From Kofleriaceae bacterium (GTDB taxonomy: Bacteria > Myxococcota_A > Polyangia > Haliangiales > Haliangiaceae), in NCBI GenBank assembly GCA_018057825.1, contig JAGPCY010000033.1, positions 1 to 64,000 of the forward strand: a stretch of DNA of 64,000 nucleotides. Reading direction: 5' to 3'. The notes beneath the pieces were generated by a model, which was not told the origin of the DNA, did not search any database, and worked only from the letters and a program-made list of their open reading frames with translations. Shown here piece by piece: positions 146-27,597 of this stretch. The number at the start of each line of letters is the position of its first letter. The first letter of the stretch is position 1. The position numbers were made by a program, and so were the translations under genes.

Positions 146-3130
146 TCAGTTCCCGATCCGCTGCGGCGTCGAGTTCTTCGACAGCGACTCCGAGGCGCCG
201 GTGAGCGCGTCGGGCGTGATCGCGACGTCGAGCTCGCTGCCGCTGACCGAGCCGTGGCACGAGCCGCAGACCGCGTCGAACAGCTCCTCGCGGATGCCGA
301 GCGAGATCGTCTCGCCGGGCGCGAGCTGGTGCTCCTCGCCCATGTTGACGAGCACGTTGCCCGAGCCGTCGCGCAGCTCGAGCACGACGCCGACGCCGGC
401 CGGGGCGTTGAAGCGCACCGAGCCGTCGTCGGCCAGCCGGGCCCGGCCGGCCTCGACCCGGTTCTCGTAGACCCCGTTGGCCTGATTGCCGCTGGTGGTG
501 CCGGCCGGCGGCGGCACCTCGGCGTAGGCGACGAGCTGGGTGGCGCTGCGGAAGTTCTCGACCGGCCGTCCGCGGCGCAGGTTGCCGGTGAGCAGCGTGA
601 ACACCATCGGCGCGTCGGGCATGTGGACCACGGCGCGACCATCGGCGGCCAGCGCCGGATCGACCGCGCCGCCGAACACCAGCTGACGCCGGTTGTAGTA
701 GGGCTTGCGCGGCGCGGTCCGGATCGCCAGCACGCCGTCGACCTGGGCACCGGCGCCGCCGATCAAGGTCGTGCGCGCGCCGGTGTGCGGATCGATGGCC
801 ACCAGATCCCAGTCGAGGGAGGTCACCGTGCCGAGATCGCCGGTGGTCGCGGCGTAGGCGACCAGGATCCGGCCGTCGGGCAGGCCGACCGGGCCGCGGT
901 AGGCGCCGCTGGTCGCCGAGCCGACCCGACCGGTGGCCGCCGGGTCGGGGAAGCTCGCCGACCGCAGGTAGCCCGGGTCGCCGCGACCGGCCTCGAAGGT
1001 GCCGATGCTGCGGTTGAAGATCGCGAGGGTGCCGGCGCCGCCGCGCGCGCCGGCGTCCGAGGCGATGAACAAGAGGTTGCCGTTGTAGTCCTCGCGGATG
1101 TCGGTCGCCTGGTCGTAACCGATCGAGTCGTTGGCGGCCATCGGGTTGGCAGGATCGGCGTAGGGCGAGCGCCGCCGCTGGGCCAGGAGCGGGTGGTAGT
1201 CGGTCAGGTCCCAGTTGAGGCGGCGACCGGCGAGCTGATACAGCGCCCCCGAGGCCTTCTCGGTGGTCATGATCAGCCGACCCTCGCGCAAGACGTTGGG
1301 GTTGAGCTCCGAGTTGGTGAGGAAGGTGAGCTGCTGGAGGCCGGTGCCGTCGGGCGCCATGCGCCACAGGTCCGAGGCCGGCAGGAACAGCTTGCGGCTG
1401 CGCACCGGGCCGGTCCCGCCGCCGGCGTGGTTGCCACCGCGGGTCGACGCGAACACGATCGTCGAGCCGTCGGGGCCCCAGACCGGATCGAAGTTGTGGA
1501 TCTTGATCCCGTTGACGTCGGGCTGCGCCGGCGTCACCCGCCGACAGCCGCTTCCGTCGACGTTCACCACCCAGACGCCGAGCGGATCGGCGGCGCCAGC
1601 GCGGGCCGCGAAGGCGATCGTGGTGCCGTCGTGACGGACCGCCGGGGCCGAGACGTCGGCGGTCGACGGATCGAGGCCGGCGCAACCGCCGAGCAGCGAG
1701 GTCGAGCCGCCGACCCCGGTGATGCGGCCGAAGGCGCCCAGGGTGGCCGGCGCGACCCGCAGATCGCTGCCGCCCTGGTAGGTGTCGAACTCCAGCGGCC
1801 CGGCGACGTGGTTGGCGCTGCGCTGGACGTAGACCAGCGGCACCGTCGAGCCCGCGGTCAGGGCCTGGAGCTCACCATTCGCCACGCGAGCCGCGCGCTC
1901 GATGTCGACCCACTCCTGCAGGGTACAGAACGGGGTCGCGGTCGCGGGGTCGAAGACCGCCGGGCAGGCCGCGGGATCGGCCGCGCCGAGGAGCGGCCCA
2001 CCGCGGTGTGGGATGCCGCCGCCGTCGGGCAGGATGACCTTGGCCACCGCGCGGCCACGGCGGGCGTCGGGGACCTCGAAGGCCATGAACTCCGACAGGA
2101 GGGTCTCGTAGTTCTTCTCGAGCGTGATCGACGAGACGAAGCCGTGGGTGCCGGGCCGCATCTTGAAGTCGTTGCCGGCCGCCGGGCTGTGGCAGGCGGA
2201 GAAGCCGCAGCCGCGCGCGAAGAGCATCGGCTGGACGTGATCGCGGAAGAACTCCTTGGCCGGATCGCCGTCGCCGAAGGTCCGCGGCCCCACCGCCTCG
2301 GCGAAGGCCCGGAGCTTGCCGTAGTCGGTGTCGTTGCCGCCGCGATCGGGGAAGCGATCGCCGCCGGTGTGCGGACCACCGCCCGCGCCGGCGGCCAGCG
2401 GGATCCGCAGGATCTGCGACTCATCGACCGGGTTGTCGACGAAGGCCCAGGTCTGGGCGAAGTTGAAGGCCCGCTGCTCCGGGGTGTCACCGCAGCTGAT
2501 GAAGAAGTCGGACTGCGGCGCGCCGTGGCAGTTGCCGCTGTTGCAGGTCTCGAGGACTGGCGCGACGTCGGCGTCGAAGCGCGCCCGGTTGGCGACGTAG
2601 ACCGGGTCGGTCGCGAAGGCGACCGGGTCGAAGGACGCCGGCACGAGCGACGTGCACGGCTCACCGCTCTCGCGCGCCGGCGACGGCGGTCGCAGGCCGT
2701 TCTCGGTCGCGCCGTTCTCGGTCCACGACAGGAGCGTGAGGTAGGCCTCCGAGCCGACCTGGAAGATGCCGCCGCCAGCGTGGGGCACCATGACGTCGCG
2801 GAACTCGTCGCCGTAGGCCATCTGGAGCTGCCCGGCGCCGACCGCCTTGATCAGGAGCAATGGCACCGGGTAGTTGCCGAACGGCACCAGCACGTCGCGC
2901 CGCTTCTGCAGCGCCTCGAAGCTGGTGACATCGAGGTTGCCGGCCGCGAAGTCGAACGGATCGTCGGGGTTGGTGCTGTGGCAACCGCTGGTGTTGCCCG
3001 AGCACGACGCGATGAGCAGCGGCTCGATCGTCCGTTCGTAGTACGTGCGGCCGGGAGGAGGATCCCCACCGCACGCCGCCGCCGCCGAAGCGATCGCAAA
3101 GACCAAGGTCGCCTGGGCACGCATGGACAT
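146..3130 (-). CDS. Beta-propeller (PD40) multi-haem-like lipoprotein, HzsA-related
   Basis: This 994-aa exported lipoprotein has a signal peptide ending in a lipobox at Cys20, so it should be anchored in the cell envelope. It carries four Cys/His clusters resembling c-type haem sites: CX6CH at 43-51, CX4CH at about 196 and about 308, and a standard CGSCH near 955. A WD40/PD40-like propeller occupies roughly residues 480-800 (repeats such as SAPAVRHDGTTIAFAARAG and PVWGPDGSTIVFAST). The layout of propeller plus cytochrome resembles the HzsA-related family. The first three motifs have longer spacing than CXXCH, so haem attachment there is uncertain. The start is supported by GGAG 7 nt upstream. 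It is the last gene of a three-gene minus-strand group whose first gene has the same general architecture. Function is inferred as envelope electron transfer or an oxidoreductase. Confidence 0.8.
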   Translation of the reverse strand: MSMRAQATLVFAIASAAAACGGDPPPGRTYYERTIEPLLIASCSGNTSGCHSTNPDDPFDFAAGNLDVTSFEALQKRRDVLVPFGNYPVPLLLIKAVGAGQLQMAYGDEFRDVMVPHAGGGIFQVGSEAYLTLLSWTENGATENGLRPPSPARESGEPCTSLVPASFDPVAFATDPVYVANRARFDADVAPVLETCNSGNCHGAPQSDFFISCGDTPEQRAFNFAQTWAFVDNPVDESQILRIPLAAGAGGGPHTGGDRFPDRGGNDTDYGKLRAFAEAVGPRTFGDGDPAKEFFRDHVQPMLFARGCGFSACHSPAAGNDFKMRPGTHGFVSSITLEKNYETLLSEFMAFEVPDARRGRAVAKVILPDGGGIPHRGGPLLGAADPAACPAVFDPATATPFCTLQEWVDIERAARVANGELQALTAGSTVPLVYVQRSANHVAGPLEFDTYQGGSDLRVAPATLGAFGRITGVGGSTSLLGGCAGLDPSTADVSAPAVRHDGTTIAFAARAGAADPLGVWVVNVDGSGCRRVTPAQPDVNGIKIHNFDPVWGPDGSTIVFASTRGGNHAGGGTGPVRSRKLFLPASDLWRMAPDGTGLQQLTFLTNSELNPNVLREGRLIMTTEKASGALYQLAGRRLNWDLTDYHPLLAQRRRSPYADPANPMAANDSIGYDQATDIREDYNGNLLFIASDAGARGGAGTLAIFNRSIGTFEAGRGDPGYLRSASFPDPAATGRVGSATSGAYRGPVGLPDGRILVAYAATTGDLGTVTSLDWDLVAIDPHTGARTTLIGGAGAQVDGVLAIRTAPRKPYYNRRQLVFGGAVDPALAADGRAVVHMPDAPMVFTLLTGNLRRGRPVENFRSATQLVAYAEVPPPAGTTSGNQANGVYENRVEAGRARLADDGSVRFNAPAGVGVVLELRDGSGNVLVNMGEEHQLAPGETISLGIREELFDAVCGSCHGSVSGSELDVAITPDALTGASESLSKNSTPQRIGN

Positions 3131-3242
3131 CAGTCTACTCCAGGAAGTCCAACCGGCGTCGTCGACGAACTTCGCCGCGACACCGAAAACGCGGACACGC
3201 CGCGGGTGCGGCGTGCGACGAGATGACGCGATCGTCGACCGA

Positions 3243-4088
3243 TCACCGGAGCGCGGTCAGGGCCGCCTTCGCCGTCGAGCGCACCAGCGGCGACGGGTCG
3301 GTGGTCGCGGCGGTCAGCGCGGCGCGCGACGCGGCGTCGCCGAGCTGGCCGAGGGCCCAGGCGGCGTTGCGGCGGGCGTTGGCGTCGGCGTCGCCGGCCA
3401 GCACGGCCTCGAGGCCAGCACGGCCGCTGCGGTCGCGCTCGCCGCCGATCACGCCGGCGGCGGCGGCCCGGACCCGGGCGTCGGCGTCGGTCAGGAGCGC
3501 GACCACCGGAGCGGCGTCGCTCACGTCGCGCAGGCGCGGCCAGGCGTCGAGGGCGGTCAGGCGCACCGAGGCGTCGGCGTCGCCGAGGCCGGTGGTCACG
3601 CCGGCGCGGCCGGCCGGGTGGCCGATCATGCCCAGGGCGCGGACCGCCGCCAGGCGGGCGTCGGCCGACAGCGAGGTGCGACCGGCGGCGGCGGTGAGCG
3701 CCGACACCGCGCCCGGGTGCATGAAGGCGCCCAGGAGGTCAGCGCCGTTGCGGGCCAGGCGGCTGTCCGAGCCGGCCAGGTCGGTGGTGGCGCGGGCCGC
3801 CAGCTCGACCTTGAGCTTGGCGCGACGCGCGAACCACCAGCCCGCGACCTCGCGGACCTCGTAGCGGTCGTCGTCGAGCAGGTCCATGACGACCGGCACG
3901 CAGCGGTCGCAGGTCAGGCGCTCGGCGCGCTCGACCTCGGCGATGATGGCGTCGACCGAGCCGGTCGCCTTGGCGTTCATGATGCGCTCGGCCGAGCCGC
4001 CGCGGCCGGCGTCGGCGGTGCCGGTGACGCCGACCAGCGCGAGGGCGCCAGCGACGACGAAGGTGACGAAGCGGAGTTGGTTCTTCAT
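3243..4088 (-). CDS. Secreted HEAT-repeat protein
   Basis: The protein has 281 aa. I chose the ATG at 4088 because GGAGG lies 9 nt upstream and the protein then opens with a clean signal peptide (MKNQLRFVTFVVAGALALVG, cut near ADA-G). An in-frame ATG 48 nt upstream is less likely. The mature protein is a run of roughly six alpha-helical HEAT/PBS-lyase-type repeats (for example LAAVRALGMIGHPAGRAGV and RRNAAWALGQLGDAASRAAL). Repeats of this type act as protein-binding scaffolds. There is one CDRC pair near residue 60 and no enzyme motif. It lies between two propeller-cytochrome lipoprotein genes on the same strand, 44 nt after the first and 112 nt before the second. A scaffold role for those proteins in the periplasm is plausible but inferred. 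Confidence 0.85.
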   Translation of the reverse strand: MKNQLRFVTFVVAGALALVGVTGTADAGRGGSAERIMNAKATGSVDAIIAEVERAERLTCDRCVPVVMDLLDDDRYEVREVAGWWFARRAKLKVELAARATTDLAGSDSRLARNGADLLGAFMHPGAVSALTAAAGRTSLSADARLAAVRALGMIGHPAGRAGVTTGLGDADASVRLTALDAWPRLRDVSDAAPVVALLTDADARVRAAAAGVIGGERDRSGRAGLEAVLAGDADANARRNAAWALGQLGDAASRAALTAATTDPSPLVRSTAKAALTALR

Positions 4089-4132
4089 GATGACGGTCCT
4101 CCGAAGCGAGGGACGTTGAGGGTGGCGAGGGT

Positions 4133-6328
4133 TCACAGCGCGTTCGGGGCGTTTAGGCGCGAGTAGAACTGGCCGCCGTTGTCCGCCATCATGACCAGGA
4201 GGTAGTACTCGTCGGCCGTCAGCTCGACGCCGAGGTCGCGGGCGTGGGCGGCGCCGGGGAAGGCGCGGGTGCCCATGTCGACCTGCGGGAACTGCTGCGG
4301 CGGGTTCAGCTTCTGGATGAGCAGCGAGTCCTTGGCGTTGCCGGGCTCGATGTAGGTCTTCAGATCGCCGACCACGACCAGGTCGGCGCGCTCGAGGTCG
4401 CGCATGCTCGGGCCGATGAGCGACAGGTGCGAGGCCGAGTAGCCCGACAACATCTCGTCACCGACGCCGTAGGTGGCCGGGCCGCCGCGCAGGTCGAAGG
4501 TCCAGGTGAAGGTGGCGCCGGTCATCGGGTCGCTGATGGTCCACGTCGGGTTGGCCGGGCCCGGGGTGCCGTTGTGGCAGCTCACGCACTTGGCGTCGAG
4601 GATGGGCTGCAGCGCGAGATCCCACGGGATATCGACCGTCTCGTTCCGGGTGAACGCCGCCGACTTGCGCTGGCTACGCGGGGTCGCGTCGCGCAGCCGC
4701 ACCGGGCCGCGGCCGATGGCCTGGGTCACGCCGGGCTGGATGACGGTGGTCTCGGTCCGGTTCTCGTGGCAGCCGCCGCAGAAGCGCTGCTCGCCAGGAC
4801 CACCCGAGAACCACACCGGCTCGTTGACCAGGGCCATGCCGAACTTGTCGATGGCCTGGACGTGGACCGGGACGTTGGCCGGGATGAGCGCGGCCCACGA
4901 GCCGTCGGCCTCGACCGGCGCGACGCCCAGGACGGCGGCGCCCTCGTGCTCGGTCAGGCCGAAGTCACGCGGGATGCCCTCCTCGGTCGAGAAGCCCTCG
5001 ATGACGCGGACGCCGTAGACCGAGCCCGGCGCCATCGTGGCGACCGACGAGCGGTAGACGTCCATCGAGCCGATGAGGGTGGCGTTCTGATCGAACTGGT
5101 GGCGACCGACGGCCGGGATGACCGGCGGCGCGGTGCGGCCGGCCAGGGGCCGAGCCATGATGTCCCAGCGCTCCGGGTCGTCGAACAGCGGCCGGCGCGC
5201 GCGGGCCTTCGAGTCGTAGACGAAGAGGCCGAACTGGGCGTTCTTGCCCGCCGCGGCCAGCGTCCCCGACTCGACGGTGCCGTCGGACCAGCTCACGAGC
5301 AGGGTCGGCTGATCGGCGGCGTCGAGGGGGAAGGCGTCGTAGTAGCGGCCGATCGTGTTCGACGACGGCTCGCGACCGAGCGGCACGTTGGGGGTCAGGA
5401 TGCGGGCCTCGGCGGTCGCCTCCGACATGTCCTTGTCGGCGCGGACCTCGCCGTCGACGGTCGACGCGGTGCCCAGGCGGATGTCGAGGATCGTGCCCGA
5501 CTGCACCGTGCGGTCGCGCGACGAGCCGATCGCCACGAAGCGACCGGGGGAGACCTCGCGGGCCTTGTAGTAGGAGTTGGTGACCCCGGTCGACTCCTTG
5601 CCGAACGCCTCGCGCATCGTCGACATGTCGGGGTTGACGAACATGAGGTGGCCCGAGTTCATGTCGCCCAGGTGGTCCCACTGGGTCATGACCACGCGAC
5701 CGTCGGAGGCCAGCGTCGGGAACAGGCGGTGCGACAGGTTGCGCGGGCCGAGTACCTCGTTGGTGCCGTCGCGGTTCATCACGCCGAGCTGCAGGGTCTC
5801 GCCGCGCTCGTACTCGTCGCGGTGCTGGGGCGCGCCGGCCTCGACCACCTTGTTGGTGGTGAACATGATCTTGTCGCCCGGGAGGAAGATCGGGCTCATG
5901 TAGTCGTGGTTCGGGTCGGTCGCGAGCTGCTCGACCGCGCCGGTCTCGAGGTGCAGGATGAACAGGCCGTAGCGCTGGCCGCTGGTCAGCCGACCCGAGA
6001 ACAGGATCTCGCCCTTGGCCGGGGTGGCCTGGGCGTCGAACGACAGGTCGTAGCTCTGGATGTCGATGTCCGCGAACTCGGCACCGGCCTGGGCGCAGCA
6101 CAGCTCCTCGAGCTTGCCGTCCGCGGTCGGCGGCGACAGCTTCACCAGCCGCCCGCCCGGCTGGTACGAGCGGTACTGGAAGATGTCACCCATGTCGTTG
6201 CGGGGGGTGCGCTGCAGGAAGACGATGGCGTCCACGCGGTCCAGGGGACCGGTGGTGTCGTCACCGCCGCAGGCAGCGGCGCCCAGTAGCGCAACCGAAA
6301 GCGCGATACCAGTGGGGATACGGTTCAC
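4133..6328 (-). CDS. HzsA-like propeller/cytochrome c lipoprotein
   Basis: A 731-aa lipoprotein beginning at GTG 6328. The start is set by a perfect AGGAGG at 6335-6340 with 6-nt spacing, preferred over the ATG at 6343 that overlaps the ribosome site. The signal peptide ends at LGAAAC. The N-terminal two thirds contain PD40-type propeller blades (MSPIFLPGDKIMFTTN and similar). The C-terminal third has two canonical haem motifs, CGGCH near residue 516 and CVSCH near residue 581. The order of propeller, CXXCH, CXXCH matches the hydrazine-synthase-alpha-related (HzsA-like) family of envelope proteins. No anammox gene accompanies it, so hydrazine synthesis is not implied. It probably leads a transcript with the HEAT protein and the second propeller lipoprotein. 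The substrate is unknown. Confidence 0.85.
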   Translation of the reverse strand: MNRIPTGIALSVALLGAAACGGDDTTGPLDRVDAIVFLQRTPRNDMGDIFQYRSYQPGGRLVKLSPPTADGKLEELCCAQAGAEFADIDIQSYDLSFDAQATPAKGEILFSGRLTSGQRYGLFILHLETGAVEQLATDPNHDYMSPIFLPGDKIMFTTNKVVEAGAPQHRDEYERGETLQLGVMNRDGTNEVLGPRNLSHRLFPTLASDGRVVMTQWDHLGDMNSGHLMFVNPDMSTMREAFGKESTGVTNSYYKAREVSPGRFVAIGSSRDRTVQSGTILDIRLGTASTVDGEVRADKDMSEATAEARILTPNVPLGREPSSNTIGRYYDAFPLDAADQPTLLVSWSDGTVESGTLAAAGKNAQFGLFVYDSKARARRPLFDDPERWDIMARPLAGRTAPPVIPAVGRHQFDQNATLIGSMDVYRSSVATMAPGSVYGVRVIEGFSTEEGIPRDFGLTEHEGAAVLGVAPVEADGSWAALIPANVPVHVQAIDKFGMALVNEPVWFSGGPGEQRFCGGCHENRTETTVIQPGVTQAIGRGPVRLRDATPRSQRKSAAFTRNETVDIPWDLALQPILDAKCVSCHNGTPGPANPTWTISDPMTGATFTWTFDLRGGPATYGVGDEMLSGYSASHLSLIGPSMRDLERADLVVVGDLKTYIEPGNAKDSLLIQKLNPPQQFPQVDMGTRAFPGAAHARDLGVELTADEYYLLVMMADNGGQFYSRLNAPNAL

Positions 6329-6334
6329 GGCGAG

Positions 6335-6340
6335 CCTCCT
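6335..6340 (-). promoter_or_regulatory. Ribosome binding site fixing a GTG start
   Basis: The minus-strand sequence AGGAGG lies 6 nt before GTG 6328. It overlaps the codons just after an upstream in-frame ATG (6343), which would be a poor start, so it decides the N-terminus of the HzsA-like lipoprotein. Confidence 0.8.
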
Positions 6341-6424
6341 CATGGTCGGCGAGAAGAGCAAGCACCGCGCCAGATCTAACCCCACAGAATCACATCCGCG
6401 GGGCCGCCGAGAAGGAGGTTCGCT

Positions 6425-6470: not shown

Positions 6471-7076
6471 CTACACCAGCCCACGTTCAGCGGCGAGGGC
6501 GCGGAGCTCGGCCTTCAGCCGCTCGAAGCGCTTGCGGAGGGCGGCGGCGTGCTGGTCGGGGGTGCGGCCGTCGCCGGCGCCTATGGCGATCGCGATGTCG
6601 CGCCACGCCAGCTTGCGATCGATCCGCAGGATCAGGAGCTCGTGATCCTCGGGCGCGAGCTGATCGCGGAGCTGGCGCAGGCCGTCTTTGACCTCGGTGC
6701 GCAGGAACTGGACCGTGGCCGAACGGATCTGCTCGGCCCGATCGAGCACCTCGGGCGCGACCTCGAGCGGGACCAGGCGACGCGCCGCCGGCGAGCGCTT
6801 GAGGCGAAACAGCGCGTGGCGGGCCAGGGCGTAGGACCAGGTCCGCAGCGAGGCGTCCCAGCGAAACGCCGGCAGGCCCTTGCACAGATCCTCGCAGAAG
6901 GTCGCGAAGGCCTCGGCGGCCAGATCGTCGTCGCGGGCGATCGCGTGGAGGTACGCCGCGAGCTCGCCGCCGTACAGCTCGATCGCGGCGGCGGCGGCGG
7001 TCCGGAGATCCCCGGCCCGCACCGCGTCGCGAACCGGCGCCTCGCGGCGGGCGCGGACGTCATCGTCGTCGGCCAC
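6471..7076 (-). CDS. RNA polymerase sigma factor, ECF/sigma-70-like
   Basis: This 201-aa cytoplasmic protein has a region-2-like helix bundle (AYLHAIARDDDLAAEAFATF, then FRWDASLRTWSYALARHALF, the WLY/R-type core contact motif) and a C-terminal region-4-like helix-turn-helix (LAPEDHELLILRIDRKLAWRDIAIAI...). Overall it matches small sigma-70 family factors, although region 4 is longer than usual (GAGDGRTPDQHAAALRKRFERLKAEL). The start is GTG 7076, the first in-frame start after the kinase stop, 8 nt downstream of that gene. No anti-sigma gene is adjacent. The upstream kinase-TPR protein is the likely control partner, a pairing common in myxobacteria. Its target promoters cannot be told from the sequence. 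Confidence 0.85.
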   Translation of the reverse strand: MADDDDVRARREAPVRDAVRAGDLRTAAAAAIELYGGELAAYLHAIARDDDLAAEAFATFCEDLCKGLPAFRWDASLRTWSYALARHALFRLKRSPAARRLVPLEVAPEVLDRAEQIRSATVQFLRTEVKDGLRQLRDQLAPEDHELLILRIDRKLAWRDIAIAIGAGDGRTPDQHAAALRKRFERLKAELRALAAERGLV

Positions 7077-7084
7077 GGCGCATG

Positions 7085-10000
7085 CTACTGCAAGCGGGCC
7101 GCGAGCGCATCGATCGCCGCGAGCTGGCGCGCGAACACCTCGGGGTAGGCGGCGAAGTGGCTCCGGGCCGCGGCCAGGAGCTGGCGCGACTCGTCGGCGC
7201 GCGTGCCGGCGGCCAGGTTGGCGCGGGCGACCTCGATCGCGAGATCGTGGACGCCCTGCCCGCCCCCGGCCTCGGCCATCGCCAGGCCGCGCCGGGCGGC
7301 GTCGGCGCCCACCGCGAGGTCGCCGCGCCGGGTCGCGACCTCGGCGATCAGCCGCAGCGCGTAGATGTGGCGGACCGAGCCGGGCAAGTGCTCGGCGTAC
7401 ACCGCCAGGGCGCGCTCGCCGTAGCGGCCGGCGTCCGCGAGGTCGTCGGCCAGGAGGTGGGCGGTGCCGAGGTTGAACAAGGTGTCCGCGAGATCGGGAT
7501 GGCGGGGGCCCAGGGCCCGCTCCTCGATCGGCAAGGCCCGGCTGAGCACCTCGACCGCCTCGCGGTAGCGCCGCTGCTTCATCGCCACCACCGCCTGATT
7601 GGCGTCGCACTTGGCGACGTCGGGGTGGTTGGGGCCCAGGCTCTTGGCCAGGATCTCGCGGGCGGCGCGGAAGTTGGCGACCGCCTGGTCCTGGGCGGTG
7701 CGCTCGTCGGTGAAGACCACGCCGAGGTTGAGGAGCGCGTAGGCGCGGTCGAGGAGATCCTCCCCGGGGTGGGCGTCGAGCTGGCGCTGCGCCTCGCGCG
7801 CCAACGCCAGCGCGTCGGCGGAGCGATCGGCCTCGGCCAGGCTCATCGCCAGGTCGGCGCGCATGAGGGCGCAGGTCGCGTGGGCGGCGCCGAGCGAGCG
7901 ATCGCAGCGCGCGACCGCGTCCTCGCCGTGGGCCACCGCCTGCGCGAGGTCGCCGACCCCGGCGTGGCTCGCCGCCAGGCTCTGCTCGAAGGTGGCGATC
8001 GCGAACTCGTCCTCGTCGGGCGACACCAGCGACCGGGCCCGCGTCGCGTAGGCCAGCGCGGCGGCGCCGTCGCCGCGCGCATCGGCGGCAGCGGCCAGCG
8101 CGCCAAGGACCCGGACCACCCCGCCGGCGCCGCGCCGCAGATCGCGCTCGATCGCCGCGCCGGCGGCGCGCAGCCACGGCTCGACCGCGCGGGCGTCACC
8201 CTGGAGATCGCCGATGACCTGGATGAGCCCCGCCAAGGCCGGCAGGTAGATCGCAGCATCGTCGAGGGCCTGGCCGGCGTAGTAGGCGTCAGAGTAGAAG
8301 CCGATCGCCGCCGGAAAGTCGCCGCGCGCCGAGGCGATCTCGCCGCGCAGCCGAGTGAGCATCGCGGCGTTCTGGCGATCGTCGGCCGCCGCTGGCGCCA
8401 GCGCACCGACCGCGACCTCGGCGGCGGCGACCCGGCCGATCGCGAGATCGACCGCGGCCAGCTCGAGGCCCGCGCGGATCGCCGCCGCGGCCGGCGCCGG
8501 CGGCGCCGGGTTCGCGGCCAGGGCGACCGAGTCGACGCAGTCGCGGGCCGCGGGCGCCGCGCGCAGGCGGCGCAGGTACTGCTGCGGGCTGTCGCGGGCC
8601 AGGTCGGCGTCGTCGACGATGCGGGCGGTGACCTGAGCCCGATAGCGCAGGCACGCCACGCTGCGCTCGTACAGCTCCGGCGGCAAGATGCGATCGATCC
8701 GCGCCGCGCGGCAGGCCGCGTCGGCGGTCAGACGGAGGCGGTGCGCCAGGGCGCCAACCGCCCGCGTCCCCGCGTCGCCGACCGCCGCGTCGACCCGGGC
8801 CACCAGCGCCGCGGGCAGCTCGCGATCGACAAGCGCGCTGGCGTCGCGACACGGGTCGGGCGCGGCCCGGGGCCACGCCCACCAGGTGGCGACCGCGATC
8901 GCCGCGGCGGCGCCGGCCGCGCCGATCCGACGCCGACGCTGCCCGACCGCACGATCGAGCGCGCGCAGGAACTGGTCGAGGTCGCGGAAGCGGTCGGCCG
9001 GCGCCACGGCCAGCGCGCGGCGCAAGACCCGACCGACCGCTGGCGGCACCGAACCGCGCGGCGGCCACGGCGGCCCCGCGCGGACCGCGTCCTCGAGGGA
9101 CCGCGTGGTCTTGCCGGCGTGCGGGCGCTGGCCGTAGAGCGCCTCCCAGATCACCACCGCGAGGGCGAACTGATCGGCGCGGACGTCGGCCTTGCCGAGG
9201 AACTGCTCGGGTGCCATGTAGGCCGGCGTGCCGACCGCGGCCCCGGTGCGCGTGAGGCGGTCCGACAGGACGTCCTTGCGCCCCGCGCCAGATCGCGAGC
9301 CGCTGACCGGCGTCGGCGTCGGGCTGGCCCCGTCCACGCCGCCGAGCGTCGGACCGTCGGGATCGAAGGCGACCACCGGCACGCCGTCGCCGACCTCGGC
9401 GCGCTCGTCGCCCTGGGCCCGGGCCAGCCCGAAGTCGGCGACCTTGGGCACGCCGGCCTCGGTCAGGAGCACGTTCTCCGGCTTGAAGTCGCGATGCACC
9501 AACCCGGCGGCGTGGGCGGCGGCCAGGCCCTGCCCGGCGGCCCGACAGCGCGCCAGCGCCTCGCGCCACGGCCGACGCGCGGCCTTGAGCCAGCTCCGCA
9601 AGGTGCCACCGGCCAGGTACTCCATCGCCACGAAGACGTCGTCGCCGTGGCGCCCGACGGCGTGGACGGTGACGACGTGCGGATGGGACAGCCGCGCCAT
9701 CGCGGTGGCCTCGCGCTGCAGGCGATCGAGGCCGGCGCCGGCGTGGTGCAGCTTGACCGCGACCGGGCGATCGAGCGCGGTGTCGTGGGCCAGGTAGACC
9801 ACGCCCATGCCGCCGGCGCCGAGCCGACGCTCGATGCGGAAGGTCTCCCCGACGATCGTCCCCGGGGCGAGCTCGGGCTCGGTCGGCGCGGAGGGGGTCG
9901 CGGCCAACGCGGCGAGCAACGGGTCGAGGGCGCTGGCCGAGCCGGCGCTGTCGAGCAACGCCGTCGACTGCTCGGGATCGACCGCGGCGTCGCCGACCCG

Positions 10001-10132
10001 CTGGGGTGACGACGGCGCGACCGGCTCCTCGGGGCCCGGGGACGGCGGGCTGGGCTCGCGGCCCTCGGGGTGGCCCACGCCGCGAGTATCGCACGGGGCT
10101 CCGAGGCCGCGGGGCACGGCGCCGCGGTTCAT
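7085..10132 (-). CDS. Membrane Ser/Thr protein kinase with C-terminal TPRs
   Basis: The protein has 1015 aa. Residues 1-90 are a Pro/Ser-rich tail. The Hanks-type kinase domain spans about 96-395: glycine loop GAGGMG at 105-110, catalytic Lys127 (VAVK), HRDFKPEN at 213-220, DFG at 233-235 and APE at 307-309. All catalytic residues are present. The segment between DFG and APE is about 72 residues, roughly double the usual length, because of a Pro/Ser/Thr/Gly-rich insertion. One membrane segment follows (about 403-420). Then come some 590 residues of helical tetratricopeptide-type repeats (for example [25 protein letters not shown]), presumably extracytoplasmic. The ATG overlaps the mutS stop (ATGA), indicating coupling. 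The next gene is a sigma factor, so a stimulus-sensing kinase controlling that factor is the simplest reading. Confidence 0.93.
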
Positions 10133-13797: not shown

Positions 13798-16700
13798 TCA
13801 GCGGACGTGGAGCGCGCCCGAGATCCCGCTGGCCTCGACCCGCAGGAGCTGCCCGCGCAGGTTCGGGGTGCTCGAGTCGAAGTCGTCGATGTCGCCGGCG
13901 TCGACGATCCACACCGACTCGTCGGGGCCGCGCACGACGTTGGCGGGCTGCACCACGCCCTCGCCACCGGCCACCACCGACAGGAAGCCCGACTCGACCC
14001 GGAAGCCGAGGACCATGCCGGTCGACAAGACCGGGATGGCGCCTAGACCGCCCGCGCGATCGCCGCGGCACATCGCGTCGCCGGGGTAGGTCAGGTCGAC
14101 CATGCGCACCCGCATGAGCGGGTTGTCGAAGCGGACCGCGGTCGTGGTGCGGGTCGCCACGCGCGGGGTCGCGCTGGCCAGCGTGCAGGTCCCGGCGACG
14201 TAGTCGGGGACCTCTTCGCTGTGCTCCACGGTCTCGGTGCAAGGGTTGGGCGACAGGGCGGTGCCGCTCGGGCCGGCGCACGGCGGCGCGGTCAACGGTA
14301 CGCGCCCGACCAAAAGCGGGCTCGCCGTCGGGTCCTTGACGCAGCGACCGTCGGGGGCGGCCACGATCGGGTGCAGGTAGCCGGTGCGCGAGCCGATCGC
14401 CACCAGGGCGTCGGCGGCCCGCAGGTCGTAGCGCTGGAGGCCGGCGACGCACGACGGCGACGGCACGACGCCCTCGAGGCAGCGGCCCCCGCGGCACAGG
14501 TTGCCGGCGGCGCAGTCGTCGTCGGCCTGGCAGGTCCGCACGCAGCGGTTGCCCAAGGTCGGGCGGTACGGATCGGCCTCGCAGGTATAGGTCGCGGTCG
14601 GCGCCGCGGTGGTGTCATCGATCGGGTGCGCGTCGGAGCTCAGGCGCGCCTCGAAGGTCGCCAGGGTCTGGCACTGCTCGGTCGAGGTGCAGCCGCCGAC
14701 CGGGGTGGTCCGCAGCTCGCTCTTGCGCTCGCGCAGCGCCAGCCGGCCGGCGAAGGCCTCCTGGACGGCGAAGCGCCGGGTCGAGATCAGGTAGTCGCGG
14801 CACAGCCCGGCCAGGATGTTGGCCTCGGCCTCCGGCAGGCAGGCCCCAGTCGAGACCTGGGAGTCGGGGTGCAGGTAGCAGATCTGGCCGGCGCCACACT
14901 GGCTGTTGCCGCGGGTCGGGTCGCAGCCGCGCATCGTGACGATGTCGTTGACCTCGACGCCCGCGCCGCAGAAGGGCCGCGAGCCATCGACCAGCGAGAT
15001 GCCGCCGCCGCCGACGTCGAGCGTCCCGGCCCGGACCTGTGGACCATCGACGGCGCTCGAGCCGTCGACCGCGTCGCGCGACAGCACGCCTTGCCAGGTG
15101 AAGGTCCAGTCCTCGGTCGACGACAGCGCGTGCCAGTCGGGAAAGCTCTCGACCTGACGCACCGGATCGGCCGAGAACGCCAGGTCGGTCACCAGCGCCG
15201 TGCCGTCGTCGCCGGTACACACCGACTGCCGGATCGCCGGCAACATGTACGACTTGCGACCGGCGAGCTGCGACGACGCGAAGGAGCGCGCCGGGGGCTC
15301 GTCGGTGCGCGGACCGCCGCCGAGCCCGGCCGCGGTCGCGACCAGGGGCTGCTCGGCCTCGCAGGCGCGGAACGATGGCTGCCCGTTCGACGGCGGCGTC
15401 ACGAAGGTGACCTCGCGATCCGGGACGCCATCGCGCAGCGCGTGGGGCACCGCCGAGGTCACGATCGCGCTCAGCGGATCCTGGCTCGACGCGGTGTCGG
15501 CGTAGTTGTCGTCGTCGATGTTGATGACCACGGTGAAGCCGGTCGACAGCGCGACGTAGGCGAAGTGGCCACCGAGGAGGAACGGGCTCGGCGCGGTGCC
15601 GCTGGCGCGCTCGCCGACCGCGCGTCCCACCGTGACCGCGACCGGCCGGGCCGCGCTGGCGAAGTGGATGCCCGGACCGGTCGCGCCAGCCCGCCGCGGC
15701 GGCGTCGACGGCCCGCCGACCTCGACGCAGATCAGCTTGGTCTCGTCGCGCTCGGCGGTCAGGTAGCGCGGATCGCCCTGGGTCTCGCACTCGCGATCGT
15801 CGACCAGCACCTCGGCGACCCGGACCGTGCCGTCGGTCGCGACCGCGTAGACGAACTGCGCCTCGGTGCCGGCGTCGCCGTCGTTGGGCCCGGTCGTGCC
15901 GCCCATCGTGATCTGGCGCGTCACGGCGATGTCGGTGACGCCGACCTCGCCCTCCAGATCGATCGTCTTCACGGTCGCCGGCCGGCCGCTGGCGTCGAGG
16001 TCGACCACCGTCACGGCCGGCCGGTTGGCCAGGCCGATGGCCAGGGTCTGGGTGCCGGCGCGATCGTCGCGCACCAGATCGAGGGTGACCGGGCGCGCGC
16101 CATCGATCAGCGGATCGCGGGTCGCGCCACACTGGCGCGGGCAGGCCAGGTCAGCGCCGCCCAGGACGGCGGTGCCATCGTCGGAGAAGCGGATCGAGGC
16201 GACCACCGCGCCGGTCGCGGCGTCGACCGCCGCCACCGCGTGGCAGTCGGGATAGGCGAGATAGTGGATGCCGACCGGGGTGGCCGGACAGGCGACCCCG
16301 ACCGGGCTGGCCAGATCGGCCGCGACCATCGCCGCCGGCCGGGCCAGGAGCGGGCCCGAGGCGACGGTGACGGGCAGCGCGTCGACCACCGCGCCGTCGC
16401 GCTCGGGGATCGCGGCGATGTCGATGACCGACAGGTCGCAGGTCCCGGCGTTGGCGGTGAGGACGTGGCAGCCAGCGGTGTCGGTGGCGATCGCCACCGG
16501 GTTGGTCCCGACCACCAGGGCGTTCTGGCCCGGGATCAGCGGATCGCTATCGTCGACGGCGAAGCTGCCCTCGACGTAGCCGCGGTCGGCGTCGCTGTCG
16601 GCCGGTCCGCGGACCCGGGCGCTGACCACGGTCATGGTGCCGCTGGTCGGCTGGATCGCGAACGCGTACCAGAACACCGCGCTGTTGGGGATCTCGCCCT

Positions 16701-16977
16701 GGCCGTTGGGCACGTAGGTCGACGACGGGTCCTCGGTGAGATCGGGTCCGCCGAAGGCCCGGCCAGCGCAGGCCGACAGCGGCTGCGGCGACGACTGGAT
16801 CTCGTCCGTCGGATCGGGGGTGCCGTTGTCGCCCAGCAGGCGGAGCCGGCCGTAGCAGCCGAACGCCAGGTCGACCGGGCGATCGAAGCTGCGCTGGACG
16901 GTGGCCTGGCTGCTGGTGTCGCCGCAGGCGGCCCCGGCCGCGACCGCGACGAAGAGCGTGAGCAGGCGCCGGTTCAC
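13798..16977 (-). CDS. Large secreted Cys-containing lipoprotein, function unknown
   Basis: The protein has 1059 aa. It starts at GTG 16977 with GGAGG 6 nt upstream and overlaps the preceding gene's stop (GTGA). The signal peptide and lipobox (VAAGAAC) make it an envelope lipoprotein. The N-terminal half has propeller-like strands (DLAFGCYGRLRLL, VAIATDTAGCHVLTANAG, TVVDLDASGRP). The C-terminal half has Cys-rich motifs of the myxobacterial type (CQADDDCAAGNLCRGGRCLEG, QCGAGQICYLHP), which are probably disulfide-bonded. No catalytic motif is recognised. It is coupled to the upstream propeller lipoprotein (16974-18269), so the two likely act together at the cell surface. The role is unknown. 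Confidence 0.8.
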   Translation of the reverse strand: MNRRLLTLFVAVAAGAACGDTSSQATVQRSFDRPVDLAFGCYGRLRLLGDNGTPDPTDEIQSSPQPLSACAGRAFGGPDLTEDPSSTYVPNGQGEIPNSAVFWYAFAIQPTSGTMTVVSARVRGPADSDADRGYVEGSFAVDDSDPLIPGQNALVVGTNPVAIATDTAGCHVLTANAGTCDLSVIDIAAIPERDGAVVDALPVTVASGPLLARPAAMVAADLASPVGVACPATPVGIHYLAYPDCHAVAAVDAATGAVVASIRFSDDGTAVLGGADLACPRQCGATRDPLIDGARPVTLDLVRDDRAGTQTLAIGLANRPAVTVVDLDASGRPATVKTIDLEGEVGVTDIAVTRQITMGGTTGPNDGDAGTEAQFVYAVATDGTVRVAEVLVDDRECETQGDPRYLTAERDETKLICVEVGGPSTPPRRAGATGPGIHFASAARPVAVTVGRAVGERASGTAPSPFLLGGHFAYVALSTGFTVVINIDDDNYADTASSQDPLSAIVTSAVPHALRDGVPDREVTFVTPPSNGQPSFRACEAEQPLVATAAGLGGGPRTDEPPARSFASSQLAGRKSYMLPAIRQSVCTGDDGTALVTDLAFSADPVRQVESFPDWHALSSTEDWTFTWQGVLSRDAVDGSSAVDGPQVRAGTLDVGGGGISLVDGSRPFCGAGVEVNDIVTMRGCDPTRGNSQCGAGQICYLHPDSQVSTGACLPEAEANILAGLCRDYLISTRRFAVQEAFAGRLALRERKSELRTTPVGGCTSTEQCQTLATFEARLSSDAHPIDDTTAAPTATYTCEADPYRPTLGNRCVRTCQADDDCAAGNLCRGGRCLEGVVPSPSCVAGLQRYDLRAADALVAIGSRTGYLHPIVAAPDGRCVKDPTASPLLVGRVPLTAPPCAGPSGTALSPNPCTETVEHSEEVPDYVAGTCTLASATPRVATRTTTAVRFDNPLMRVRMVDLTYPGDAMCRGDRAGGLGAIPVLSTGMVLGFRVESGFLSVVAGGEGVVQPANVVRGPDESVWIVDAGDIDDFDSSTPNLRGQLLRVEASGISGALHVR

Positions 16978-18269
16978 GACGGACCTCCGATGCGCAGGAC
17001 CACCCGGTGCAGGTGCGAGGAGGTCGGATCGACGTCGACCACCGCCACCGAGTTATCGAGGAAGTTGGCGACCAGCACCAGGCGCCGACTCGGCACCGCG
17101 GCGATCGCGATCGGGCCCCGGCCGACCAGGGCGGTGGTGTCGACGGCGCCGCCGGCGCGGGGATCGACGACGTAGAGCGAGCCATCGCCGTAGCAGGTGA
17201 CGTAGGCGCGCTCGCCCAGGCCGCTGTCGAGGGCGGTGACCGCGCTGGCCTGGCGACAGATGTCGGTGTTGGCGATCAGCCGGTTGCGCGGCACGCCGGT
17301 AGCGTCGAGGCTGGTGTCGAGCTGCTGCAGCGCCGGCGGGCTGCGGTTGATCATGAGGGCGCGATCGCCGCCGTCGCGGAAGACCACGCCGCGCGAGTCG
17401 GCGCCGGTGCCCCCCACCCCGCTGCCGCCGCCGATGCCGTTCTGCGAGAAGAAGCCGCCGCCGACCAGCAACGGCGCGGCGTCGGCCTGGCGCGCCACCG
17501 ACATCAGGAACACCCGGTCGTCGGCGCGGCTCTGCACGTACAGCAGGTTGTCGGGGCCGGACACCCGGCCGGCGATCGCCGACATCCCGGCCGAGATGCC
17601 GACCGTGACCGCGTCGGCCAAGACCGGCGCGCCGTCGGGCGGCGAGTCGACCAAGGACACGATCCCCTGGCTGAAGTGCGCGACCGCGGCGAACTGCGCG
17701 AGGGAGTCGACGTAGATCGCGTAGGGCTCGACCGGCAGGTCGTCGTCGTCGCGCACGGTGACCAGGCGGTGCTCGTCGTCGCACAGGGCGAAGCCCTGAT
17801 CGTCGCTGCACAGAAGCCGGCGGCTCGTCGGGTCCCAGTCCATCCAGGTGATCGACGGGTCGCCGCGCACCGGCACCAGGAGGCGGAGGCGGCCGGAGCC
17901 CAGGTCCTGGACCCCGATCGCGCTGGCGAAGTTGCCGATGCGCACGCCGGCGGCGTCGATCAGGAAGTCGGCCTCGGCGCAGTCGAGGGTCTCGGGCTGG
18001 TTGGCGTCGGCGGCGCAGCCCGGCGGCACGGTGCGGCTGGTGGTCCAGGCCGCGACCACCTGCTCGACCACCGCCAGGTCGACGACCTGGATCGAGCCGG
18101 AGTCGTAGGTCAGATCCGAGTTCCCCGACACCACGAAGGCGACCGAGTCATCGGGGCTGACCGCGACCGCGGTCGGAAAGAACAGCGTGTCGGGGTCCGG
18201 GCGGACCTCGGACTCGGCGGCGGTACAGGCCGCACAGGCAGCCACGGCGGCGAGCCAACGGAGGGACAT
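16974..18269 (-). CDS. YVTN-like beta-propeller lipoprotein
   Basis: The protein has 431 aa. I placed the start at ATG 18269 because it gives a signal peptide and lipobox (MSLRWLAAVAACAAC). The upstream open frame overlaps the ppdK end region and lacks support. The mature part shows YVTN-type propeller blades: TAVAVSPDDSVAFVVSG, GSIQVVDLAVVEQ and near the end VANFLDNSVAVVDVDP. Such propellers usually bind proteins or ligands rather than catalyse. The stop overlaps the start of the 1059-aa lipoprotein by 4 nt, so the two are co-translated. It lies 74 nt from ppdK on the same strand. The biological role is unknown. Confidence 0.8.
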   Translation of the reverse strand: MSLRWLAAVAACAACTAAESEVRPDPDTLFFPTAVAVSPDDSVAFVVSGNSDLTYDSGSIQVVDLAVVEQVVAAWTTSRTVPPGCAADANQPETLDCAEADFLIDAAGVRIGNFASAIGVQDLGSGRLRLLVPVRGDPSITWMDWDPTSRRLLCSDDQGFALCDDEHRLVTVRDDDDLPVEPYAIYVDSLAQFAAVAHFSQGIVSLVDSPPDGAPVLADAVTVGISAGMSAIAGRVSGPDNLLYVQSRADDRVFLMSVARQADAAPLLVGGGFFSQNGIGGGSGVGGTGADSRGVVFRDGGDRALMINRSPPALQQLDTSLDATGVPRNRLIANTDICRQASAVTALDSGLGERAYVTCYGDGSLYVVDPRAGGAVDTTALVGRGPIAIAAVPSRRLVLVANFLDNSVAVVDVDPTSSHLHRVVLRIGGPS

Positions 18270-18343
18270 GGCAGGGCGATTGGACCGGCGGGCCGGCCCC
18301 GGGGTTGCCTGCCGGCCAGCGGCCGGCGTCGGGTCGATCACGA

Positions 18344-24202
<5,859 letters not shown>

Positions 24203-27561: not shown

Positions 27562-27597
27562 GGCGGCATCCTAACACCGGCCTCGCCCCCTGCGCGA

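What the first reader, a model, noticed from the sequence alone, without database searches (positions are those of the whole stretch)
146..6328. Two propeller/cytochrome lipoproteins with a HEAT scaffold, mixed haem motifs
Both large lipoproteins combine PD40 propellers with Cys/His clusters, like HzsA-related proteins. The 994-aa one has CX6CH and CX4CH sites besides a normal CXXCH. Unusual spacings are known in a few haem proteins and would be an unusual four-site chain. A secreted HEAT protein sits between them.
Basis: partly seen in the sequence, partly recalled or inferred. Interest (0 to 1): 0.5.

Follow-up and report, generated by a model that had tools for sequence, protein, structure and literature searches.

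The report
Conserved HzsA-like cytochrome gene trio
Three neighbouring genes, kept together across a large group of myxobacteria, encode two membrane-anchored relatives of the haem protein that makes hydrazine in anammox bacteria plus a small helical repeat protein; they are probably a redox complex of unknown substrate, and one of them may hold haem through an unusually long loop.

Summary
Confirmed and extended. The window holds an operon: 750-aa lipoprotein, secreted HEAT protein, 994-aa lipoprotein. Both lipoproteins are fold relatives of hydrazine synthase alpha (HzsA): Z 32.6 over 563 residues and Z 33.9 over 461 residues. The 750-aa protein has the HzsA layout: propeller, middle domain with haem alphaI, C-terminal haem alphaII. 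The 994-aa protein lacks alphaII and carries three cytochrome-like modules before the propeller, with CX6CH, CX4CH and CX4CH; its CXXCH is the alphaI site. In 18 loci from elsewhere in the class every motif, one candidate distal His per N-terminal module and a CXXC in the HEAT protein are kept; the first motif is CX6CH or CX8CH. The two lipoprotein genes co-occur in 86 of 212 class genomes, one HEAT-sized gap apart in 75 of 87 cases. CX2CH and CX4CH swap at equivalent sites in relatives, which favours haem binding. HzsA's Tyr591 and zinc Cys are absent, and no beta-gamma partner was seen nearby, so this is not a hydrazine synthase. Best reading: a roughly six-haem envelope redox complex, substrate unknown. 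No haem was measured. New variant of a known kind.

The parts
4133..6385 (-). HzsA-like lipoprotein 1 (750 aa as listed; likely start ATG at 6343): propeller, HZS_alpha middle domain, C-terminal cytochrome c
   Evidence: ORF; PF18582 52.4 bits; 5c2v_A E 1.5e-6, profile E 1.7e-15; fold Z 32.6 over 563 residues
5066..6241 (-). propeller of protein 1 (about residues 49-440)
   Evidence: strand pattern; fold match to HzsA and TolB propellers; boundaries approximate
4763..4954 (-). HZS_alpha middle domain of protein 1 (478-541)
4766..4780 (-). CXXCH 536-540, haem alphaI-type site of protein 1
   Evidence: 33/33 A4 rows and 19/19 distant-set rows; aligned to the HzsA motif ending at His587
4574..4588 (-). 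CXXCH 600-604, haem alphaII-type site of protein 1
   Evidence: 30 of 33 A4 rows CX2CH, 3 CX4CH; aligned to the HzsA alphaII motif
4244..4246 (-). His714, candidate distal ligand of the alphaII-type haem
   Evidence: 28/29; 32/33 A4 rows and 19/19 distant-set rows, kept in the rows with CX4CH
3243..4136 (-). secreted HEAT-repeat protein (297 aa as listed; likely start ATG at 4088)
   Evidence: PF13646 E 9.2e-23; alphaRep/HEAT chains; signal peptide by eye
3900..3911 (-). invariant CXXC (C76, C79) of the HEAT protein
   Evidence: 31/31, invariant in 35 rows, CXXC in 18/18 distant loci
146..3130 (-). HzsA-like lipoprotein 2 (994 aa): three cytochrome-like modules, propeller, HZS_alpha middle domain
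   Evidence: ORF; fold Z 33.9 over 461 residues, 344-994 against HzsA 41-622
2978..3004 (-). module 1 motif CX6CH (43-51)
   Evidence: 40 CX6CH and 5 CX8CH of 47 rows, 2 unreadable
2780..2782 (-). His117, candidate distal ligand of module 1
   Evidence: 29/29; 19/19
2525..2545 (-). module 2 motif CX4CH (196-202)
   Evidence: 29/29; 19/19
2369..2371 (-). His254, candidate distal ligand of module 2
   Evidence: 29/29; 19/19
2189..2209 (-). module 3 motif CX4CH (308-314)
   Evidence: 29/29; 19/19
2006..2008 (-). His375, candidate distal ligand of module 3
   Evidence: 29/29; 19/19
716..1846 (-). propeller of protein 2 (about residues 429-805)
   Evidence: strands; TolB-propeller matches; boundaries approximate
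305..499 (-). HZS_alpha-like middle domain of protein 2 (878-942)
   Evidence: (19.3 bits, below cut-off); hhalign to the protein-1 middle domain 97.6%
254..268 (-). CXXCH 955-959, alphaI-type site of protein 2
   Evidence: 29/29; 19/19; aligned to the protein-1 alphaI motif

Best explanation
A three-gene operon for an envelope-anchored redox complex built from two paralogous HzsA-like lipoproteins and a periplasmic HEAT protein. Shown here (sequence, fold model, conservation): both lipoproteins have the HzsA propeller plus middle domain; protein 1 carries two CXXCH (alphaI and alphaII positions); protein 2 carries the alphaI-position CXXCH plus three homologous cytochrome-like modules with CX6/8CH, CX4CH and CX4CH, each with an invariant candidate distal His; the genes are co-inherited across the class. 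Inferred: all six sites bind haem c; the HxGG histidines give bis-His low-spin haems that pass electrons between an outside partner and the alphaI haems; the alphaI haem, without HzsA's Tyr ligand, is held by the CXXCH His and is either the catalytic or the terminal site; the HEAT protein docks the two lipoproteins and its CXXC is a redox or metal site. Substrate unknown, probably not hydrazine chemistry. My likelihoods: CX4CH sites bind haem about 0.85; the CX6/8CH site about 0.7; the three products form a complex about 0.7; the job is electron transfer or redox catalysis about 0.6.
For: Fold. Sequence homology to HzsA, carried mainly by the middle domain (other stretches weak singly; protein 2 as a profile E 1.7e-7). 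The two proteins are paralogues: (98.7%, 464 columns). Modules 1-3 homologous with motif and HxGG His in register (d1-d3 95.8%, d2-d3 96.2%, d1-d2 88.9%); a helix ends at or within three residues of each motif, as in class I cytochromes c (the comparison is recalled). Motif and His conservation. CX2CH/CX4CH swaps at the module-2 site (L138-L141 against L125 and L127-L137) and at the alphaII site in paralogues, and in 3 of 33 protein-1 rows, which keep His714. Covalent haem on a CX4CH motif shown by mass spectrometry in MmcA (PMC11024163, passages). Synteny: 34 of 49 loci with all three genes in order; 86 of 212 genomes with both lipoprotein genes, 75 of 87 adjacent with a median gap of 1,090 bp; HEAT gene found in all 18 distant loci examined. 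The genome encodes Cytochrom_C_asm (CcmF/CcmC-type) and CcmH proteins. One solo protein-2 copy (L112) starts 78 bp after a gene run that matches alternative complex III.
Against: No haem, complex or activity has been measured. Model confidence is lowest at several motif loops (in protein 1 also at 542-546, just after the alphaI motif) and no coordinates were available. hhalign of module 3 to the protein-1 alphaII domain is only 2.7%, and the module 1 and 2 matches to it cover about 20 residues around the motif. The 994-aa protein scores under the PF18582 cut-off. Solo protein-2 copies without the other two genes exist, so it does not always need them. In 10 of the 11 paralogues with CX4CH at alphaII the distal His is missing and a Cys stands nearby (L141 keeps a His), which weakens the swap argument at that site. 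In L138-L141, the CX2CH rows at the module-2 site, the nearby His is shifted by a column or two. Altering the Cys spacing is known to disturb Ccm attachment (PMC3601427, passage).
Confidence: 0.6

Rival explanations
1. The long-spaced CX4-8CH clusters are disulfide or metal (e.g. zinc) sites in remodelled, haem-free cytochrome-like modules; only the three CXXCH bind haem.
For: Site 1 is CX6 or CX8, never CX2 or CX4, in 45 readable A3 rows and 18 distant loci; low model confidence at some motif loops; no CX6CH or CX8CH haem site among the 25 of 28 papers listed; extra conserved Cys (C159, C213, C389, C402) show that disulfides are likely nearby.
Against: His after the second Cys and one candidate distal His in each module, both invariant; modules homologous to each other; CX2CH in place of CX4CH at the module-2 site in L138-L141; CX4CH is a proven haem c site elsewhere (PMC11024163).
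Confidence: 0.2
2. Haem is bound but is structural or sensory: the complex supports envelope assembly or senses redox or calcium state rather than transferring electrons, as TfcP does for PilY1 in Myxococcus xanthus.
For: TfcP is a myxobacterial cytochrome c judged unlikely to take part in electron transport (PMC8833165, passages); no other multi-CXXCH protein lies near 30 trio loci except one short frame; in the window, L063 and L072 a sigma-factor-like gene and a Ser/Thr kinase gene lie upstream.
Against: Six CXnCH sites, four of them with a candidate second His, suit electron transfer better than one sensor haem; one solo copy sits beside an alternative complex III gene run.
Confidence: 0.2
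3. It makes or uses hydrazine or hydroxylamine as HZS does, with a divergent active site.
For: Fold match to HzsA well above all other listed chains; solo protein-2 copies lie about 7 kb from a gamma/beta-gamma-like protein in L080 and 5 kb from an HDH/HAO-like octahaem protein in L112; others suggest a broader enzyme family with other substrates (PMC10732223, passages).
Against: No Tyr within five residues after the alphaI CXXCH in 33/33 and 19/19 protein-1 rows and 44/44 and 19/19 readable protein-2 rows; no Cys in 98-535 of the window's protein 1 for zinc; no other ORF with two or more CXXCH near 30 trios except one short frame; no match in the own genome to the beta-gamma-like protein, though that test had no positive control.
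Confidence: 0.07

Closest known systems
Hydrazine synthase alpha subunit (HzsA, PDB 5c2v chains A/D; NCBIfam NF052339, Pfam PF18582)
   Same: Propeller plus middle domain ending in the alphaI CXXCH; protein 1 also has the C-terminal alphaII cytochrome
   Different: No Tyr591, no zinc Cys in the window's protein 1 as far as tested, lipoprotein anchor, no beta-gamma genes seen nearby; protein 2 lacks alphaII and has three extra N-terminal modules; two paralogues per operon
HzsA homologues of clades I-III in Planctomycetota and Syntrophobacter (PMC12758564, section 7 and passages)
   Same: HZS_alpha proteins with a haem alphaI motif and without Tyr591; some lack alphaII
   Different: Those were chosen for co-located beta-gamma genes, with FG-GAP genes beside them; here the partners are a HEAT protein and a second alpha-like protein. 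The paper's main text has no match for 'myxococc'
CX3CH/CX4CH multihaem cytochromes (MmcA of Methanosarcina, PMC11024163, passages)
   Same: Covalent haem c on CX4CH
   Different: CX6CH and CX8CH are longer; no relation was tested
MccA/SirA sulfite reductases (CX15CH, dedicated haem lyase; PMC6976685, passages)
   Same: One haem site with a long Cys spacing
   Different: Spacing 15, not 6 or 8; whether a dedicated lyase serves the present protein was not tested beyond the Ccm matches
TfcP of Myxococcus xanthus (PMC8833165, passages)
   Same: Myxobacterial cytochrome c with unusual ligation
   Different: Small, single CXXCH, His/Cys ligation, acts on PilY1

Membership tests
HzsA (hydrazine synthase alpha) | Propeller plus HZS_alpha middle domain fold | tested here: met
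   Z 32.6 over 563 residues, rmsd 3.4 (protein 1), Z 33.9 over 461 residues, rmsd 3.1 (protein 2); next rows 24.2 and 27.0
HzsA (hydrazine synthase alpha) | Haem alphaI held by Tyr591, four residues after the CXXCH His | tested here: not met
   Column is T544 in protein 1; no Tyr within five residues after the motif in 33/33 A4 and 19/19 distant-set rows, and in 44/44 A3 and 19/19 distant-set rows of protein 2. Numbering from my count (chain index + 27)
HzsA (hydrazine synthase alpha) | Zinc ligand Cys303 | tested here: not met
   Window protein 1 has no Cys in 98-535; no Cys column reaches half of the A4 rows there; C96 and C97 are in 18 of 33 rows but lie early in the propeller. In the distant set 11 of 19 rows have Cys at column 213 and 11 of 19 at column 254, equivalence not established; protein 2 keeps C483 and C529, likewise. 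The paper says Cys303 is also missing in Scalinduaceae
HzsA (hydrazine synthase alpha) | C-terminal alphaII haem with distal His772 | tested here: inconclusive
   Protein 1: CXXCH aligned and His714 in 32/33 and 19/19 rows, but three columns off His772 by my count. Protein 2 has no such domain
HzsA (hydrazine synthase alpha) | NCBIfam equivalog cut-off NF052339 (800 bits) | tested here: not met
   50.3 and 23.4 bits
HZS complex | beta and gamma (or fused) subunit genes alongside | tested here: not met
   30 trio loci of 9.7 to 19.9 kb: no other ORF of 100 aa or more with two or more CXXCH except one 272-aa frame in L072. Copies elsewhere in the genome not excluded
Pfam PF18582 HZS_alpha proteins | Score over the curated cut-off of 26.6 bits | tested here: met
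   Protein 1, 52.4 bits
Pfam PF18582 HZS_alpha proteins | Same, for protein 2 | tested here: inconclusive
   19.3 bits in the window protein, some orthologues over the cut-off (e.g. G007, G311), 39 of 47 rows at E <= 0.01
c-type cytochrome modules (protein 2, 24-425) | Haem attachment motif with following His and a distal ligand | tested here: inconclusive
   Motif and candidate distal His invariant, spacing not canonical
c-type cytochrome modules (protein 2, 24-425) | Covalent haem | not testable with these tools
   needs protein chemistry
Geobacter CxxxxCH...CXXCH family (PF09698) | Score over the cut-off of 21.7 bits | tested here: not met
   15.3 bits, protein 1

The most novel reading that the evidence does not exclude
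A widespread respiratory or detoxifying enzyme of this myxobacterial class that reuses the HzsA scaffold as a heterodimer bridged by a redox-active (CXXC) HEAT protein, wired by three cytochrome modules, the first of which attaches haem through a CX6CH or CX8CH loop, a haem c attachment spacing that my paper search (those spellings only) did not find described.
Probability: 0.35. Interest if true: 0.7.

Novelty: new variant of a known kind. Interest (0 to 1): 0.5.

Why it matters
The papers I saw give HzsA-like proteins outside anammox no established function. Here is an operon with a fixed composition, present in about two fifths of the surveyed class genomes (86 of 212), including genomes held as a single contig, so gene removal in a cultured strain could show what the scaffold does without hydrazine chemistry. 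It also offers a natural test of how far apart the two haem-binding cysteines can lie for the Ccm machinery, with CX2, CX4, CX6 and CX8 loops in related modules.

Tried and rejected
Hydrazine synthase proper was rejected on Tyr591, the zinc Cys, the NCBIfam cut-off and the lack of neighbouring beta-gamma genes. The propeller-like lipoproteins further upstream in the window (13798-16977 and 16974-18485) were checked as beta-gamma candidates: no CXnCH in either and no useful match to the L080 protein, so dropped. The roughly 300-aa secreted protein downstream of the 994-aa gene in several relatives has no Pfam match in the three members scanned; in the own genome its relative lies on another contig, so it was not counted as part of the operon. 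The paper search for CX4CH with 'heme binding motif' and 'cytochrome' found nothing. VIA-align rows are dominated by propellers; the absence of cytochrome c rows for residues 24-425 of the 994-aa model says nothing. A family tree of HzsA-like proteins was not built, so the order of the duplication relative to anammox HzsA is not known. Neighbouring genes of the trio were scanned with Pfam only in part. One search counted only rows covering at least 75% of the query, at most 99% identical and distinct (29, 29 and 31 rows). L126, a cut paralogue, was left out of the first alignment.
Full report
OBSERVATION. The window begins at the start of contig C31, so whatever lies downstream of the 994-aa gene is cut off. 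The 994-aa protein has CX6CH (43), CX4CH (196 and 308) and CXXCH (955); the 750-aa protein has CXXCH at 536 and 600; the HEAT protein has exactly two Cys, as CXXC. Shuffling gives 0.027 such motifs on average for the 994-aa composition and never four in 20,000 trials.

WHAT THE PROTEINS ARE. Protein 1 (750 aa) passes the Pfam cut-off for the HzsA middle domain and matches HzsA in the PDB by sequence (E 1.5e-6; as a profile 1.7e-15, carried mainly by the middle domain). AlphaFold2 models from the window protein plus 32 and 46 orthologues reached mean pLDDT 80 and 83. Foldseek ranks HzsA first for both (E 4.7e-25 and 2.2e-20). VIA-align gives Z 32.6 over 563 residues, rmsd 3.4, for protein 1 (49-749 on 54-803: all domains) and Z 33.9 over 461 residues, rmsd 3.1, for protein 2 (344-994 on 41-622: propeller and middle domain, no alphaII). 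Profile comparison shows the two window proteins to be paralogues over propeller and middle domain, with the CXXCH of protein 2 on the alphaI CXXCH of protein 1. The HEAT protein matches ordinary HEAT/alphaRep solenoids.

THE UNUSUAL MOTIFS. The stretch 24-425 of protein 2 consists of three mutually homologous modules (hhalign 88.9 to 96.2%), aligned so that the CXnCH and a later HxGG histidine fall in register while the loop between the two Cys takes the gap. Each motif follows on a predicted helix, and a further helix lies near each module's end, as in class I cytochromes c (recalled). His117, His254 and His375 are kept in 29/29 near rows and 19/19 rows of the distant set, window included. 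In 45 readable rows of A3 the first motif is CX6CH 40 times and CX8CH 5 times; in 18 distant loci it is again CX6CH or CX8CH only, followed by CX4CH, CX4CH and CX2CH. In paralogues the module-2 site is CX4CH in L125 and L127-L137 but CX2CH in L138-L141, where a His lies a column or two from the aligned one. This interchange, with the mass-spectrometric proof of haem on CX4CH in MmcA (PMC11024163, passages), is my main reason to take the CX4CH sites as haem sites. For CX6/8CH the support is indirect: homology of module 1 to modules 2 and 3 and the invariant His pair. Against it: the model is poor at 45-49, 314-320 and 367-378; module 3 aligns to the alphaII domain with only 2.7%; and in 10 of the 11 CX4CH paralogues the alphaII distal His is replaced by a nearby Cys. 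A paper search for CX6CH and CX8CH spellings gave, among the 25 of 28 papers listed, no CX6CH and one CX8CH, in a plant chaperone paper (listing only); other spellings were not searched.

CONSERVATION OF THE SET. Of 49 loci from the genome-contig scan, 34 hold protein 1, HEAT and protein 2 in this order on one strand, 3 hold HEAT and protein 2 at the start of a contig, and 12 hold protein 2 only, five of them with 2 kb or more of upstream sequence. In 212 class genomes at least 90% complete, protein 1 was found in 87 and protein 2 in 87, of which one (G259) only through a weak paralogue row. Without the 12 weakest rows, 86 genomes hold both and one (G264, near a contig end) only protein 1; protein 2 follows protein 1 on the same strand in 75 of 87 cases with a gap of 879-2,159 bp, median 1,090 bp. 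In 11 of the other 12 the protein-2 rows used lie on other contigs; one of these (G256) has a dropped row right beside protein 1. The HEAT gene was found by profile in all 18 distant loci examined, each with a CXXC. The own genome has only these two PF18582 proteins; in the phylum 76 of 283 genomes match PF18582, in the 14 control genomes none. Co-occurrence counts do not correct for kinship.

HOW IT MAY WORK. Shown: lipobox-like Cys on both large proteins and a likely signal peptide on the HEAT protein (by eye), shared scaffold, conserved Cys and His, co-inheritance. Inferred: a membrane-anchored complex with up to six haems, in which the three modules of protein 2 and the alphaII domain of protein 1 exchange electrons with outside partners and the alphaI haems sit in the HZS_alpha domains. 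The alphaI site is not that of HZS: no Tyr follows the motif within five residues in 33/33 and 19/19 rows of protein 1 or 44/44 and 19/19 readable rows of protein 2, and the window's protein 1 has no Cys in 98-535 that could bind zinc, though 11 of 19 distant-set rows have a Cys at column 213 and 11 of 19 at column 254. HZS facts are from passages of PMC12758564 and PMC12607021. A hint at the partner: a solo protein-2 copy in L112 starts 78 bp after a gene run matching alternative complex III (molybdopterin/Fe-S protein, NrfD, ActD; the last gene of the run has no Pfam match), and the own genome holds a close relative of its NrfD subunit on another contig (60% identity, one TGA inside the matched frame). 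This is one of five solo copies looked at. The own genome has three Cytochrom_C_asm and two CcmH matches, so haem attachment machinery is present; whether it accepts a CX6CH loop is unknown.

COMPARISON WITH WHAT IS KNOWN. HzsA homologues outside anammox are described in PMC12758564 (section 7 and passages read), which finds key residues missing, and in PMC10732223 (passages), which supposes other substrates for the weakest relatives. The paired-alpha plus HEAT arrangement and the three-module extension were not mentioned in the parts I read; 'myxococc' has no match in the main text of PMC12758564, and a search for Myxococcota with hydrazine synthase listed 12 papers, none about such proteins by title (listing only). 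I therefore call it a new variant of a known kind. It works perhaps like a wired HzsA scaffold; it is not a member of the hydrazine synthases.

LIMITS. The named relatives are metagenome-assembled or uncultured records; several loci are cut by contig ends. E-values from hhalign on sub-alignments are uncalibrated. No coordinates of the models were available, so ligand geometry was not tested. Substrate, partners and haem content are open.

Noticed in passing
L112 3076-9881, 9959-12925 and 18122-19819: A solo protein-2 copy follows an alternative complex III gene run by 78 bp and precedes by 5 kb an eight-CXXCH protein that resembles hydrazine dehydrogenase/HAO (NF052343 E 4e-20, 71.7 bits against a cut-off of 900).
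   Followed up: partly
L080 2-2977: A 991-aa propeller-MauG protein with weak likeness to HZS gamma and the beta-gamma fusion (NF052341 E 5.6e-9, far below cut-off; 5c2v_C 6.9e-5) lies 7 kb from a solo protein-2 copy; no match in the own genome (no positive control).
   Followed up: partly
L125-L129, L131, L132, L134, L136, L137: Ten paralogues with CX4CH at the alphaII position lack the distal His and have a Cys nearby instead; possible His/Cys ligation or a disulfide. L141 has CX4CH and keeps a His.
   Followed up: no
window 6471-7100 and 7085-10132, minus strand: A sigma-70 region 2-like protein (below cut-off) and a Ser/Thr kinase with TPRs directly upstream of the trio; related genes also precede it in L063 and L072.
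   Followed up: no
window 26512-27570, minus strand: A frame of about 350 aa with two CXXCH and no Pfam match.
   Followed up: no
L063 15483-16364 and relatives; own genome C26:112883-113671: A conserved secreted protein of about 300 aa without Pfam match in three members scanned, often next to the 994-aa gene in relatives but on another contig in the own genome.
   Followed up: partly
distant protein-1 rows (L145-L162 set), columns 213 and 254 of the window protein: 11 of 19 rows of the distant set have a Cys at column 213 and 11 of 19 at column 254, both absent from the window protein; perhaps a propeller disulfide.
   Followed up: no
own genome C16:305072-307408: Cytochrom_C_asm and CcmH matches in one 943-aa open frame, which looks like a CcmF-CcmH fusion.
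   Followed up: no
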